Both the position numbers and the translations under genes were made by a program. Below, in pieces: positions 60,939 to 64,000 of a stretch of DNA of 64,000 bases. Source of the DNA: Pseudonocardia sp. SCN 73-27 (GTDB lineage Bacteria; Actinomycetota; Actinomycetes; Mycobacteriales; Pseudonocardiaceae); contig MEGH01000039.1 of the NCBI GenBank assembly GCA_001725415.1, positions 41,556-105,555 of the forward strand, in the 5' to 3' direction. The notes beneath the pieces are model-generated. The model did not search any database, was not told where the DNA came from, and saw only the letters and a program-made list of their open reading frames with translations. Each line of letters opens with the position of its first letter. Within the stretch, counting starts at the first letter, position 1.

Positions 60939-60964
60939 ATAGTGGATGCCTGCACACTATGCGA
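60939..60964 (+). promoter_or_regulatory. Box upstream of the ComA-like gene
   Basis: ATAGTG and CACTAT form a 6-bp inverted repeat (60939-60944, 60955-60960). The complement of 60955-60964 reads TCGCATAGTG, identical to a box at 62024-62033 upstream of the flavoprotein gene. A shared regulator for both genes is likely. Confidence 0.5.
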
Positions 60965-60979
60965 AGTAGGATCCGTCCG

Positions 60980-61765
60980 GTGACACTTCCTGCATTCCTC
61001 GACCTTCCGCCGCGTTCCGTGAAGCCGCGGACGGTCGGAGTCACCCACGTCATCGACCAGGGGGCCGGTACCGCGGCCACGGCCGACCTCCTGGCGTCGG
61101 CGGCAGGGCACATCGACATCTGGAAGGTCGGCTGGGGCACCGCCTACGTCGACTCGGCGCTCCCGGCCAAGCTCGCGCTGCTCGAGGCGCACGACGTGGC
61201 GGCCTGCCTGGGCGGCACCATGCTGGAGATCGCGTGGGCCCAGGGTGCGGCCGAGGCCTGCCTGGAGTGGGCGGGCGAGGTCGGTTTCCGGCTGATCGAG
61301 GTCTCGCGCGGCACGGTCGCGATGTCGATGCAGGAGAAGCGGGAGCTGATCCGCCGCGCGTCGCGCGACTTCACGGTCCTCGCCGAGACGGGCGCCAAGT
61401 CCCCGGGCGAGCGCAACCCGGCGCGGCACTGGCCGGCCGAGTGCCTGTCCGACCTCGACGCGGGCGCGCGGTTCGTCGTCACCGAGGGCCGGCAGAGCGG
61501 GAACGTCGGCACGTTCGACGAGTCGGGCCGGGTCCGCCCCGACGTCGTGGAGGCCGTCGTGGCCGCCACCGGCGTCGAGCGCGTCATATTCGAGGCGCCG
61601 CGCGCGGCCCAGCAGGCGTGGTTCGTCCGCCGTTTCGGGCCCGACGTGAACCTGGGCAACGTCGCGCTCGCCGACGTGCTGTCGGTGGAGACGCTGCGGC
61701 TCGGGCTGCGGTCGGACACCGCCGCGGTCGTGCGCCGCGAGCACCAGGAGGCGGAGCTCGCCTGA
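60980..61765 (+). CDS. ComA-like phosphosulfolactate synthase
   Basis: A 261-residue TIM-barrel protein of the ComA family, which adds sulfite to phosphoenolpyruvate to make (2R)-phosphosulfolactate, the first step of one coenzyme M pathway. Conserved blocks: LPPRSVKPRTVGVTHVIDQG, IDIWKVGWGTAYV with K49, LGGTMLEIA, GFRLIEVSRGTVAM with E107, LAETGAKSPGE. Start is either GTG 60980, after AGTAGGAT, or ATG 60959. No other recognised CoM gene adjoins it, so the end product could be CoM or another sulfonate. Confidence 0.8.
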   Translation: MTLPAFLDLPPRSVKPRTVGVTHVIDQGAGTAATADLLASAAGHIDIWKVGWGTAYVDSALPAKLALLEAHDVAACLGGTMLEIAWAQGAAEACLEWAGEVGFRLIEVSRGTVAMSMQEKRELIRRASRDFTVLAETGAKSPGERNPARHWPAECLSDLDAGARFVVTEGRQSGNVGTFDESGRVRPDVVEAVVAATGVERVIFEAPRAAQQAWFVRRFGPDVNLGNVALADVLSVETLRLGLRSDTAAVVRREHQEAELA

Positions 61766-62078
61766 CGCGTCATCCGCGTGCACCACGGGGCCGGGCGTGC
61801 CGACCTGCCCGGGGTCGGCCGTCCGACCTCTTCCGTACCCGGGGCGCGCACTCCGCGGTGACTGGGGCACCATGGGGCGCAACGGTCCTTCGCGACAGCG
61901 CACGCCGGCCGCTGGTCACGGTCGCGCGTTGCTCCTGACCTGGAGTGACGGTGCCGCGCACCGGTATCCACCGTCGGGGGGCGTTGACACAGGACGGCCG
62001 TTGAGTATGGTAAAAATCCTGAATCGCATAGTGAATGACTGGCGAACCTCAGCGTAGACGGCGGAAGGCGGGCGCAAC
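61766..62078 (+). other. Gene-free spacer before the flavoprotein gene
   Basis: About 310 bp with no convincing coding region. It holds a weak hairpin just after the ComA-like gene (GCCGACC 61799-61805 with GGTCGGC 61813-61819) that may terminate it, then featureless GC-rich DNA, then the promoter at 61984-62011. Confidence 0.5.
61984..62033 (+). promoter_or_regulatory. Promoter and operator of the flavoprotein gene
   Basis: TTGACA (61984-61989), 16-nt spacer, TATGGT (62006-62011): a near-consensus promoter in an unusually A/T-rich patch (GGTAAAAATCCTGAATCGC). TCGCATAGTG at 62024-62033 lies just downstream of the likely transcription start and matches the box at the ComA-like gene, suiting a repressor site. 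Confidence 0.65.
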
Positions 62079-63425
62079 GTGCCGCGGAAGACAGTGATCA
62101 TCGGTGGAGGTCCTGCCGGCACCGGCGCCGCGGGCGGCGTGAAGGCCGTGGACCCCTCCGCGGAGGTGGTCCTCTACACCCAGTTCGAGGACATCGCCTA
62201 CAGCCCGTGCGGCATTCCGTACGTCCACGGTGGCGAGATCGACAGCTTCGACCGGCTGATCCTTGCCGGCAAGCAGGCGTACGTGGACGCGGGCATCGAC
62301 GTCCACTACGAGACGACCGTGAAATCGATCAACACGGCGAAGAAGACCATCATGGTCGAGGGCGAGGGTGAGGTCTCGTACGACAGCCTCATCATCGGTA
62401 CCGGCTTCGCGTACGCCGACCCGGGCGTCCCCGGCACCGAGCTCGGTGGTCTGTACTACGTCAAGAACATCCGGGCCGCCCAGGAGTGGGACAAGGTCAT
62501 CGCCAACTCCAAGCGCGCGGTCGTCGTCGAGGCGTCCCCGCTGGCCATGGAGATGGTCTCGGCGCTGGCGCACCGCGGTATCGAGACGCACCTGGTCGAC
62601 GCCAACCCGTACGCCCTGTCCAACATGGCGGACCCGGACATCATGGCGCCGGTCGAGGAGTCGTTCCGCGAGCTGGGCATCCACCTGCACTACAACACCA
62701 CCCTTGAGGCCTTCCTGGGCGACTCCGAGGGCAAGCTGCGCGCGATCAAGACGTCGGCGGGCGAGATCCCGGTCGACCTCGCGGTCGTCGCGACGCACAA
62801 GACCCCGAACAACGCCCTCGCGGCGGCGGCGGGCATCAAGATCGGCTCGACCGGCGGCCTCATCGTCGACGAGAACATGAAGACGTCGGCCCCCGACGTG
62901 TGGGCCGCGGGCGACGCCTGCGAGATCCCGCACGGCCTCGCGGGTACGCCGCTGCAGGGCCTCACCGGCTCGCACGCCTACGCGCAGGGCAAGGCCGCCG
63001 GCCAGAACGCCGCCGGTGGCTCGAAGGCCTACCGCACCGTCTTCATCCCGTGGGGCACGCCGGCCGGCAAGTGGGTCATCGGTGGCGCCTCGTTCGGTGA
63101 GGCCACCGCCACCGCGCTGGGAATCCCCTACATCGTCGGTGTCGCGGAGGGTGTCTCGCGCTCGCGCTACTACTCGGGCGTGAAGAAGACCAAGCTGAAG
63201 ATCCTGGCCGACCCCAAGACGCACAAGCTGCTCGGGGCCCAGATGGTCGGCGGCGGCGACGGCATCAAGGAGCGGGCCGACTTCCTGGCCCAGGCCATCC
63301 GCTTCGGCATGACCCTCGAGGACCTCGCCACGATGGACACGGTGTTCGCACCCGCGATCGGAGCGCTCACCGAGCCGATCGTCGCCGCGGCCAACAACGG
63401 CCTCGCCGCCGCGAAGAAGGGCTGA
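62079..63425 (+). CDS. CoA-disulfide-reductase-like FAD/NAD(P)H oxidoreductase
   Basis: A 448-residue two-dinucleotide-binding flavoprotein. FAD loop GGGPAGTGAAGG (9-20), a single redox cysteine C44 in YSPCGIPYVHGGEI (the position of Cys43 in CoA-disulfide reductases and NADH oxidases), second FAD motif VWAAGDACEIPHG, and the C-terminal dimerisation domain. Unlike glutathione reductases it has no CxxxxC pair. It would reduce a low-molecular disulfide, persulfide or O2. In most such enzymes the NAD loop reads GxGxxG; here VVVEASPLAMEMV is degenerate, so cofactor preference is unclear. GTG 62079 follows GGAAGGCGGG. Confidence 0.82.
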   Translation: MPRKTVIIGGGPAGTGAAGGVKAVDPSAEVVLYTQFEDIAYSPCGIPYVHGGEIDSFDRLILAGKQAYVDAGIDVHYETTVKSINTAKKTIMVEGEGEVSYDSLIIGTGFAYADPGVPGTELGGLYYVKNIRAAQEWDKVIANSKRAVVVEASPLAMEMVSALAHRGIETHLVDANPYALSNMADPDIMAPVEESFRELGIHLHYNTTLEAFLGDSEGKLRAIKTSAGEIPVDLAVVATHKTPNNALAAAAGIKIGSTGGLIVDENMKTSAPDVWAAGDACEIPHGLAGTPLQGLTGSHAYAQGKAAGQNAAGGSKAYRTVFIPWGTPAGKWVIGGASFGEATATALGIPYIVGVAEGVSRSRYYSGVKKTKLKILADPKTHKLLGAQMVGGGDGIKERADFLAQAIRFGMTLEDLATMDTVFAPAIGALTEPIVAAANNGLAAAKKG

Positions 63426-63427
63426 TC

Positions 63428-63691
63428 GTGGCAGGCGGCTTCTCCGGCTGGCTCCGCCACAACGCCGAGCACTACCTCCTCGTCGACGCCCAGCGCAAGC
63501 TGTCGGTCAAGCTCGGGACGGCCGCCCCGCGGCCGCCCAAGGGCGCCAAGGAGATCTTCTGGCTGAAGATCTTCGCCCCGGTCTACAGCGTTCTGCCGTG
63601 GTCGCTGCGTCACTCGATCATGCGAGCCATGCCGGGAAGTCACCGGAAGACGTGGGCCTCGCCGCCGGCCCTGCAGGGGCCGGCGGTCTGA
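63428..63691 (+). CDS. Unknown 87-residue basic protein
   Basis: Starts with GTG 63428, directly after the flavoprotein stop, so probably coupled. The sequence is basic and mildly amphipathic (GWLRHNAEHYLLVDAQRKLS; GAKEIFWLKIFAPVYSVLPW; LRHSIMRAMPGSHRKTW). No cysteine and no clear membrane segment, though the FWLKIFAPVYSVLPW stretch could bind a membrane or partner. I know no family. Placement suggests it helps the flavoprotein or the following protein. Confidence 0.65.
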   Translation: MAGGFSGWLRHNAEHYLLVDAQRKLSVKLGTAAPRPPKGAKEIFWLKIFAPVYSVLPWSLRHSIMRAMPGSHRKTWASPPALQGPAV

Positions 63692-63730
63692 CCCTCGAAG
63701 CACCACCCATCCAACAAGAAGGAGTGCACT

Positions 63731-64000
63731 GTGGCTCAGATCGTCGGTGAGCGGGCTCAGGCGGGCGACGCGATTGTCGACTACGACGAGAAGCTGTTCG
63801 ACGACATCCAGGCCGAGGCGGGCGAGAAGGCTTACATCTTCATGCACACCGTGCCCTACGAGGGCTCGGTCGGTCTGGTCAACATGCTGACCTGTACCCG
63901 CATCAACCGTAAGGGCTTCGACACCTCCCTGGTGCTCTACGGTCCCGGCGTGCTGATGGCGTCGGCCACCCGTGGCTTCCCGACCGTCGGCTCGGAGGCC
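63731..64000 (+). CDS. MSMEG_0572/Sll0783-family protein, N-terminal part (cut by window edge)
   Basis: The visible 90 residues ([71 protein letters not shown]) resemble the family of cyanobacterial Sll0783 and Mycobacterium smegmatis MSMEG_0572, described as nitrogen-starvation-related and DsrE-like in fold. In those organisms it sits with a nitrilase/radical-SAM gene set. Here its upstream neighbours are a ComA-like synthase and a disulfide reductase-like protein. GTG 63731 follows AAGGAG with 7-nt spacing. Confidence 0.72.

What the first reader, a model, noticed from the sequence alone, without database searches (positions are those of the whole stretch)
60939..64000. Candidate thiol/sulfonate-cofactor locus: ComA-like, disulfide-reductase-like, unknown protein, MSMEG_0572-like
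A phosphosulfolactate synthase homologue lies beside a flavoprotein with a single active-site cysteine of the CoA-disulfide-reductase type, a coupled protein with no known family and a DsrE-like family protein. Coenzyme M and related sulfonates need both synthesis and disulfide reduction, so a CoM-like cofactor or a persulfide relay is plausible. The usual nitrilase/radical-SAM partners of MSMEG_0572 are not in the visible part. I know no described system with this combination.
Basis: partly seen in the sequence, partly recalled or inferred. Interest (0 to 1): 0.8.

Follow-up and report, generated by a model that had tools for sequence, protein, structure and literature searches.

The report
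Coenzyme M genes in nitrile-assimilation cluster
Four genes at the end of a Pseudonocardia contig are one end of a roughly 20-gene cluster, found in many other bacteria, that joins genes for making coenzyme M to genes for using nitriles or cyanide as a nitrogen source, which would be a new job for this cofactor if experiments bear it out.

Summary
The four genes are real: ComA (60959-61765), a CoA-disulfide-reductase-like flavoprotein (FDR, Cys44), an 87-aa orphan (SML) and MSMEG_0572, cut off because the contig itself ends at 64000. They are one end of a conserved cluster. SML leads to 74 loci (Pseudonocardia, Actinomycetospora, Nocardioides, Acidimicrobiia, Ruegeria and others). FDR-SML-0572 are adjacent in 65 of the 66 loci where all three were found. 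Around them lie the coenzyme M (CoM) genes comA-xcbA-xcbD-xcbE-xcbC, a cobalt-type nitrile hydratase (or an amidohydrolase instead), oxamate-carbamoyltransferase genes (AllFGH) with carbamate kinase, and Nit1C (cyanide-assimilation) genes: radical SAM, GNAT, AIR-like, glycosyltransferase. The window's genome holds most of these on other contigs, including a paralogous locus with all five Xcb-type genes. No epoxyalkane:CoM transferase orthologue was found in 30 carrier genomes searched, so the known bacterial use of CoM does not explain it.

Best reading: CoM-dependent assimilation of nitrile or cyanide nitrogen. Proposed, untested: cyanide is carried as CoM-SCN, hydrated to S-carbamoyl-CoM and phosphorolysed to carbamoyl phosphate, giving ATP, NH3 and CO2. 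Three paper searches found no description.

The parts
60959..61765 (+). comA/xcbB: phosphosulfolactate synthase homologue (first step of CoM biosynthesis), 268 aa
   Evidence: Pfam ComA 269 bits; aligned over residues 14-255 with 1u83 and 27-255 with 1qwg; 76% identical to the ComA of the paralogous locus G000:C45; 52% to a ComA of M. chubuense NBB4 beside Xcb genes, 40% to the Xanthobacter Py2 homologue
62079..63425 (+). FDR: CoA-disulfide-reductase-like flavoprotein, 448 aa; catalytic-type Cys44 (codon 62208-62210) in YSPCGIP
   Evidence: motif YSPCGIP in 68 of 74 FDR proteins of the set (65 of 70 from the loci), Cys-less YGSAG[TI]P in 4, two called without their N terminus
63428..63691 (+). 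SML: 87-aa orphan, no cysteine, predicted helical, conserved PGSHR..W and C-terminal GPAV
   Evidence: no family; 74 loci; alignment A4: no cysteine in 43 of 43 rows, C terminus GPAV in 26 and PA[VI] in 38 of 43, but the Ruegeria copy, not in A4, has one cysteine and another C terminus; model pLDDT 78, no fold match at E<=0.001; fused to MSMEG_0572 in three copy-2 loci
63731..64000 (+). MSMEG_0572/Sll0783 family gene, first 90 codons; truncated by the end of the contig
   Evidence: TIGR04044 111 bits; full-length relative in L055 224 bits; DsrE/DsrF fold; Cys114 invariant in the 42 rows aligned (42 of 58 full-length ones)

Best explanation
The window holds the comA-FDR-SML-0572 end of a cluster for coenzyme M-dependent assimilation of nitrile or cyanide nitrogen. 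SHOWN: conserved clustering of five modules: CoM synthesis (comA, xcbA, xcbD, xcbE, xcbC), the FDR-SML-0572 core, nitrile hydratase (or an amidohydrolase in its place), AllFGH plus carbamate kinase, and the Nit1C genes rSAM/GNAT/AIR/GT. INFERRED, strong: the cluster makes CoM or a very close relative and uses it itself. INFERRED, moderate: the substrate is cyanide or a nitrile used as nitrogen source. PROPOSED mechanism, untested: cyanide is taken up on the sulfur of CoM (attack on CoM disulfide or on a persulfide; FDR, the DsrE-like 0572 protein and SML handle this redox/sulfur step) to give CoM-S-CN; nitrile hydratase adds water to give S-carbamoyl-CoM; AllFGH phosphorolyses it to carbamoyl phosphate and free CoM; carbamate kinase makes ATP, NH3 and CO2. 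Only a nitrile on a heteroatom yields a carbamoyl group that AllFGH-type chemistry could release, which is why a thiol carrier makes sense of the set.
For: Gene order in 74 loci: 30 of 43 loci with full 10-kb flanks hold at least one gene each of CoM synthesis, NHase or amidohydrolase, AllFGH/ArcC and Nit1C partners. Over curated cut-offs in L055: XcbA, NHase alpha, beta and accessory, MSMEG_0572, MSMEG_0568 rSAM, MSMEG_0567 GNAT, MSMEG_0565 GT, AllG, AllH. Same genome: five Xcb-type genes on C45, NHase on C75, AllG-FdrA-ArcC-GT on C49, rSAM on C3. No EaCoMT orthologue in 30 carrier genomes. Pathway split in P. hydrocarbonoxydans: the cluster has comA and xcbC, the xcbA-D-E types lie on another contig, and the only ComA found in the genome is in the cluster. 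Presence of XcbA and SML agrees in 56 of 62 genomes of the genus, and of AllG and SML in 56 of 62. NHase and amidohydrolase never together: 33, 6 and 0 both, of 43. AllFGH converts oxalurate to carbamoyl phosphate by phosphorolysis (PMC11326118, abstract and passages). Nit1C serves cyanide assimilation (PMC11049912 passages; PMC10094980 passages).
Against: No chemistry was tested. In L055 XcbC, XcbD, XcbE, FdrA and ArcC (TIGR00746) score below their NCBIfam cut-offs, so the product could differ from CoM. Ruegeria (L085) has no xcbE between xcbD and xcbC; 6 of 43 full-flank loci show no CoM gene within 10 kb. AllH was found in only 16 of 43 and not in the stretches of this genome that I read (no genome-wide AllH search). 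The NHase scores as an ordinary nitrile hydratase (290 bits), better than as thiocyanate hydrolase (174 bits, below cut-off), so an ordinary C-nitrile is possible. This genome also has a Nit1C-type nitrilase outside the cluster (C5, 507 bits). A Cys-less FDR persists in the second copy of four genomes. One carrier outside (G377) does have an alkene-type CoM set. The roles of rSAM, GNAT, AIR, GT and SML are not explained.
Confidence: 0.5

Rival explanations
1. Nitrile or cyanide assimilation with CoM only as a protective or sulfur-transfer thiol: persulfide (0572, FDR) turns cyanide into thiocyanate, the NHase-like enzyme hydrolyses thiocyanate, and AllFGH/ArcC handle an unrelated carbamoyl compound.
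For: 0572 has the DsrE fold with an invariant Cys; the NHase alpha of L055 also matches thiocyanate hydrolase gamma; OsmC in 29 of 43 full-flank loci; among the solved relatives of FDR are CoA-disulfide and CoA-persulfide reductases and Nox.
Against: The thiocyanate hydrolase match is below its cut-off (174 of 291) while nitrile hydratase is above (290 of 250). A mere buffer thiol does not explain why 40 of 43 full-flank loci have an AllFGH or carbamate kinase gene.
Confidence: 0.2
2. The cluster degrades a specific organic nitrile (C-linked) whose carbon skeleton is activated or carried by CoM; AllFGH/ArcC recover the nitrogen.
For: NHase subunits of L055 meet the nitrile hydratase cut-offs; Co-type CTLCSC motif in 44 of 46 alpha subunits; AmiS/UreI-like channel gene in 6 of 43 full-flank loci (family name recalled, not scanned).
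Against: A C-linked amide does not give a carbamoyl group to AllFGH (chemical reasoning); I recognised no amidase by eye among the recurrent gene clusters (not scanned for).
Confidence: 0.13
3. The genes build an unknown CoM-derived cofactor or natural product (rSAM, GNAT, AIR-like, glycosyltransferase as tailoring enzymes), and nitrile hydratase and AllFGH are tailoring steps.
For: rSAM, GNAT, AIR-like and GT genes are unusual for a simple catabolic route; XRE-cupin and AfsR/BTAD-type regulators.
Against: AllFGH with carbamate kinase is a nitrogen-recovery set in E. coli (PMC11326118); the Synechocystis operon with sll0783 is repressed by ammonium and linked to cyanide use (PMC10094980 passages).
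Confidence: 0.1
4. Ordinary alkene/epoxide CoM cluster of the Xanthobacter/Mycolicibacterium kind.
For: Same Xcb-type genes in the same order as in M. chubuense NBB4, beside an FAD oxidoreductase.
Against: No EaCoMT orthologue in 30 carrier genomes (best 85 bits, 33%) against 341 bits, 48% for the NBB4 control; cluster XcbD proteins form a group apart from the alkene-type ones, support 92/81; no SML, 0572 or NHase model hit in the NBB4 and Py2 stretches.
Confidence: 0.03
5. CoM here feeds LarE as sulfur donor for the nickel-pincer cofactor.
For: LarB/LarC/LarE-like genes lie beside comA in Pseudonocardia loci (names by eye); use of CoM by a LarE is recalled, not seen in a call.
Against: LarB or LarC in only 10 of 43 full-flank loci; other carriers have the cluster without them in the flank.
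Confidence: 0.04

Closest known systems
Nit1C cyanide-assimilation cluster (nitBCDEFGH; sll0783-0787; MSMEG_0565-0572)
   Same: MSMEG_0572/Sll0783 protein, MSMEG_0568 radical SAM, MSMEG_0567 GNAT and MSMEG_0565 glycosyltransferase over cut-off, AIR-like gene below it
   Different: Nitrilase replaced by nitrile hydratase or an amidohydrolase; CoM synthesis, FDR, SML, AllFGH and carbamate kinase added; Nit1C-type nitrilase over its cut-off in only 2 of 31 carrier genomes, in the window's genome away from the cluster genes
Bacterial CoM biosynthesis and alkene clusters (Xanthobacter Py2 xcb; Mycolicibacterium etn/VC cluster)
   Same: ComA, XcbA, XcbC, XcbD, XcbE homologues, in the same order as NBB4; an FAD oxidoreductase neighbour
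   Different: No EaCoMT orthologue; no 2-KPCC, SDR or CoA-transferase recognised by eye among the recurrent clusters; FDR only about 30% identical to the NBB4 FAD oxidoreductases
AllFGH oxamic transcarbamylase with carbamate kinase of E. coli (PMC11326118)
   Same: AllF (FdrA), AllG, AllH and carbamate kinase homologues together in L055
   Different: No allantoin gene recognised by eye; FdrA 376 bits, below the cut-off of 433; AllH in only 16 of 43 full-flank loci; substrate must differ if the proposal holds
Thiocyanate hydrolase / Co-type nitrile hydratase
   Same: beta, alpha and accessory genes, CTLCSC metal motif
   Different: Embedded with CoM and Nit1C genes; thiocyanate hydrolase gamma cut-off not met

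Membership tests
Phosphosulfolactate synthase (ComA/XcbB) | Whole-domain match to Pfam ComA and to solved ComA structures | tested here: met
   269 bits, residues 18-253; 1u83 and 1qwg alignments
Phosphosulfolactate synthase (ComA/XcbB) | Sulfite addition to PEP | not testable with these tools
   needs an enzyme assay
Bacterial CoM biosynthesis (XcbA-E) | comA, xcbA, xcbC, xcbD, xcbE homologues in one genome | tested here: met
   all five in the paralogous locus G000:C45 by BLAST to NBB4 and Py2 and in L055
Bacterial CoM biosynthesis (XcbA-E) | NCBIfam cut-offs of the Xcb models | tested here: inconclusive
   L055: XcbA 296 of 150 met; XcbD 575 of 600, XcbE 240 of 450, XcbC 419 of 575 not met
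Alkene/epoxide CoM pathway | Epoxyalkane:CoM transferase in the genome | tested here: not met
   30 carrier genomes: best 85 bits, 33%; control NBB4 341 bits, 48%
Nit1C cyanide cluster | MSMEG_0572, rSAM, GNAT partners present | tested here: met
   over cut-off in L055; rSAM over cut-off in 20 of 22 carrier genomes, incl. G000 (of 14 control genomes 7 ring, 1 over cut-off)
Nit1C cyanide cluster | Nitrilase NitC/Sll0784 in the cluster | tested here: not met
   over cut-off in 2 of 31 carrier genomes; all 31 have weaker nitrilase-like matches; in G000 it is on C5 with no cluster gene in the 20 kb read
CoA-disulfide reductase | FAD/NAD domains and single active-site Cys | tested here: met
CoA-disulfide reductase | NCBIfam equivalog cut-off | tested here: not met
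   228 of 579 bits
DsrE/DsrF fold | Fold and conserved Cys for MSMEG_0572 | tested here: met
   best Foldseek hits 3mc3, 1l1s, 3pnx, 2qs7, 1jx7, 2hy5; Cys114 in 42 of 42 aligned
Nitrile hydratase | alpha, beta and accessory subunits over cut-off | tested here: met
   290/250, 161/152, 70/46 bits in L055
Thiocyanate hydrolase | gamma-subunit cut-off | tested here: not met
   174 of 291 bits in L055
Oxamic transcarbamylase AllFGH | AllF, AllG, AllH all present | tested here: inconclusive
   L055: AllG 203/27, AllH 68/25, FdrA 376/433, below cut-off; AllH found in 16 of 43 full-flank loci

The most novel reading that the evidence does not exclude
A cofactor-borne cyanide pathway: coenzyme M carries cyanide as an organic thiocyanate, nitrile hydratase turns it into S-carbamoyl-CoM, and an AllFGH-type enzyme releases carbamoyl phosphate, so that bacteria gain ammonia, ATP and reducing power from HCN. 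This would be a second use of CoM in aerobic bacteria beside epoxide metabolism, and it would give Nit1C proteins (0572, rSAM, GNAT) a biochemical setting.
Probability: 0.33. Interest if true: 0.93.

Novelty: categorically new. Interest (0 to 1): 0.82.

Why it matters
CoM genes were stated to be known only in methanogens and aerobic alkene users (PMC11507031, discussion passage); here they are tied to a nitrogen-assimilation type cluster, with no epoxide enzyme orthologue in the 30 carrier genomes searched. If true, CoM has a further metabolic role, Nit1C gains a mechanism, and cyanide could be a source of nitrogen plus ATP rather than only a toxin to be hydrolysed. It also supplies clear test strains (P. 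dioxanivorans, P. hydrocarbonoxydans, Actinomycetospora) and gives an orphan protein a defined setting.

Tried and rejected
Alkene/epoxide role of CoM: rejected for the carriers searched, no EaCoMT orthologue (27 of 32 genomes or records have some match at E<=0.001, in carriers only weak family matches); L036's genome (G377) was not in that search and does carry alkene-type sets. Canonical Nit1C membership: rejected on the nitrilase test. Thiocyanate hydrolase identity of the NHase: cut-off not met. SML by fold: no match at E<=0.001. MSMEG_0572 by sequence against PDB: best E 0.82; assigned by fold instead. LarE as main CoM user: too rare. RpiB and the genes upstream of comA in the window: not among the recurrent cluster genes. 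Paper searches on the combination: (PMC6941271 seen in the listing only; PMC4412061 and PMC12625717 passages read: the first mentions the two enzymes separately, the second AllFGHK and nitrile hydratase in nitrifiers, CoM not among its matched terms). Environmental leads, weak: PMC4919992 passages list a Pseudonocardiaceae OTU among users of 13C-ferrocyanide carbon in one of three soils.

Weak or circular points: the HMMs were built from the same loci they count; my gene caller was home-made and missed genes in lower-GC loci (L085 was read from the ORF list); L018, L019 and L020 are re-fetches of L086, L077 and L088, judged by equal contig lengths, and sit in the 78-locus set and in the 74 FDR proteins; SML was the search bait, so its own presence is not evidence; relatedness of the genomes is not corrected for. 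XcbA-only genomes G350 and G373 and the SML-only genome G380 (72% complete) do not fit the co-occurrence. Other genomes with two SML matches exist; P. asaccharolytica (L031, L038) keeps the FDR cysteine in both loci. The window's genome has an estimated contamination of 4.16%. AmiS, EaCoMT, 2-KPCC, Lar, NitB = MSMEG_0572 and LarE-CoM are names partly recalled or given by eye.

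
Full report
What is there. The window is G000:C39:41556-105555 and the contig ends with it, inside MSMEG_0572. The genome is a Pseudonocardia by its matches: its SML is 95% identical to that of P. sulfidoxydans and its paralogous XcbD groups with the same species. The clue was in the same genome: a DNA search found a paralogous locus on C45 and a third MSMEG_0572 on C57.

The paralogous locus. On C45 (L010, minus strand) the order is LarE-like, LarB/LarC-like, a 119-aa orphan, ComA, a 334-aa protein, an adenylosuccinate-lyase-like protein, a D-cysteine-desulfhydrase-like protein, an argininosuccinate-lyase-like protein, FDR2, an SML-0572 fusion, a 204-aa orphan and a GNAT (Lar names by eye). 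The equivalent proteins of L055 match XcbA, XcbD, XcbE and XcbC in NCBIfam (only XcbA over its cut-off). Identities of the C45 and L055 proteins to M. chubuense NBB4 are 52-53% ComA, 41-44% XcbA, 51-55% XcbD, 37-43% XcbE, 43-46% XcbC; to the Xanthobacter Py2 homologues 37-47%. So this genome has a full set of homologues of the bacterial CoM pathway, and the window's comA is a second copy (two ComA in all).

The conserved cluster. SML is rare in the order (4 of 298 genomes) but one scan of the collection of 84,980 species genomes gave 74 loci (93 stretches matched a pattern, 74 confirmed). Calling and clustering genes and counting with HMMs built from these loci gave, among 43 loci with full 10-kb flanks: FDR 43, SML 42, 0572 42, XRE-cupin regulator 37, GNAT 37, NHase accessory 35, ComA 34, NHase alpha 33, XcbC 33, XcbD 32, XcbA 31, NHase beta 31, OsmC 29, glycosyltransferase 29, FdrA 29, p209 29, AllG 28, XcbE 27, rSAM 26, ArcC 26, AllH 16, AIR-like 11. 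FDR-SML-0572 are adjacent and co-directed in 65 of the 66 loci (of 74) where all three were found. Thirty of 43 hold at least one gene of each of the four outer modules; 6 of 43 show no CoM gene in the flank, 3 of 43 no AllFGH/ArcC gene, 3 of 43 no Nit1C partner. Ruegeria sp. THAF57, an alphaproteobacterium, has most of the cluster, without xcbE, in the stretch read, so spread between phyla is likely.

The same parts in the window's genome. C49 carries AllG, FdrA, ArcC, GT0565 and a partial NHase-like gene (84% DNA identity to the region downstream of the matching locus in P. dioxanivorans), C75 carries NHase beta, alpha and accessory genes and an XRE-cupin gene, C3 the rSAM gene. AllH was not found in the stretches read. 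In P. dioxanivorans the order comA-FDR-SML-0572-p209-GNAT-AfsR(-)-ArcC-FdrA-GT is intact (L024), which predicts what follows base 64000.

CoM and not something else. Three results tie CoM to the cluster itself. First, of 30 carrier genomes searched (29 through loci, plus G000; L043 was not held) none has an EaCoMT orthologue: the best is 85 bits and 33% over about 214 residues, against 341 bits and 48% for the NBB4 control; 5 of the 30 have no match at E<=0.001. Second, within the genus XcbA and SML agree in 56 of 62 genomes: 28 both, 28 neither, 5 XcbA only, 1 SML only; AllG and SML likewise: 28 both, 28 neither, 5 AllG only, 1 SML only (counted by hand). Three of the five XcbA-only genomes have alkene-type sets, two of them beside an EaCoMT of 73 and 78% identity. 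The simplest reading is that both kinds of Xcb enzyme serve one product, CoM.

What it is for. AllFGH yields carbamoyl phosphate from oxalurate by phosphorolysis, and carbamate kinase can make ATP from that (PMC11326118, abstract and passages). Nit1C genes serve cyanide assimilation (PMC11049912 and PMC10094980, passages) and the Synechocystis operon was presumed to act on unusual nitriles (PMC3901256, passage). The nitrile hydratase is Co-type (CTLCSC in 44 of 46) and an amidohydrolase (Pfam Amidohydro_2 in L065) stands in 6 of 43 loci, never together with it, which suggests that both do one step. A carbamoyl group arises from a nitrile only if the CN sits on a heteroatom; a thiol cofactor next to a disulfide-reductase-like flavoprotein and a DsrE-type protein offers that. 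Hence the proposed route CN- to CoM-SCN to S-carbamoyl-CoM to carbamoyl phosphate. All steps of this route are inference.

The core trio. FDR has one CoADR-type cysteine, kept in 68 of 74 proteins; in the second copy of four Pseudonocardia genomes (L010, L025, L026, L029) it is lost, while P. asaccharolytica keeps it in both of its loci. In three of the Cys-less loci (L010, L025, L026) SML and 0572 share one open frame, which suggests that they touch. The 0572 model (pLDDT 86) matches DsrE/DsrF/Tus structures and carries an invariant cysteine at the strand-helix junction. SML has no cysteine in 43 of 43 aligned rows, a C terminus PA[VI] in 38 of 43, and no fold match.

Confidence. The cluster and its link to CoM genes: very likely real. 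CoM itself as product: about 0.8. Nitrile/cyanide nitrogen as purpose: about 0.65. The exact CoM-SCN route: about one third. I rate it categorically new because it fails the defining test of both nearest systems (nitrilase for Nit1C, EaCoMT for alkene clusters), although every enzyme family but SML and two other orphans is known. ComA near a CoADR-like gene is already described for vinyl-chloride clusters (PMC8727900, passages). My three searches for the combination found no description, but many subscription papers are not held, including the two central CoM papers.

Noticed in passing
L010:1516-2379 (G000:C45): SML and MSMEG_0572 are fused in one 287-aa frame, and the 0572 part carries a 10-residue tandem insertion absent from the 275-aa fusion of L026; it could be an assembly slip or a real duplication.
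   Followed up: partly
L010:2386-3717; also L025, L026, L029: Second-copy FDR has lost the active-site cysteine (YGSAG[TI]P) in four Pseudonocardia genomes but stays open and linked to the cluster.
   Followed up: partly
L126 (G000:C49:1-20000): A Calvin-cycle gene set (RuBisCO-, phosphoribulokinase-, transketolase-, aldolase-, CbbX-like by eye) with a second carbamate kinase and an AmiS/UreI-like gene lies on the contig that carries AllG-FdrA-ArcC.
   Followed up: no
L010:9536-12421 and several Pseudonocardia loci: LarB/LarC/LarE-like genes (names by eye) and a 109-119-aa orphan (no Pfam family for the L030 copy) sit directly upstream of comA.
   Followed up: no
L065:10859-11692 and 9 more loci: An amidohydrolase takes the place of nitrile hydratase; the two are never found together in 74 loci (48, 10, 0 both).
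   Followed up: partly
L011:8824-9393 (G000:C57): A third MSMEG_0572 gene, 91% identical to the window copy over 90 residues, with no other cluster gene found in the 19 kb read.
   Followed up: no
G000:C5:10667-11563: A Nit1C-type nitrilase just over its family cut-off (507 of 502.6 bits), away from the cluster genes.
   Followed up: partly
L147:4048-5139 (G377:C133): A 29%-identical EaCoMT-like protein next to an alkene-type xcbE-xcbD-xcbA set; function unclear.
   Followed up: no
L037: One carrier MAG (Pseudonocardia sp. 73-21) has contigs labelled SCNpilot, a label used for thiocyanate-reactor genomes (PMC8061750, passage).
   Followed up: partly
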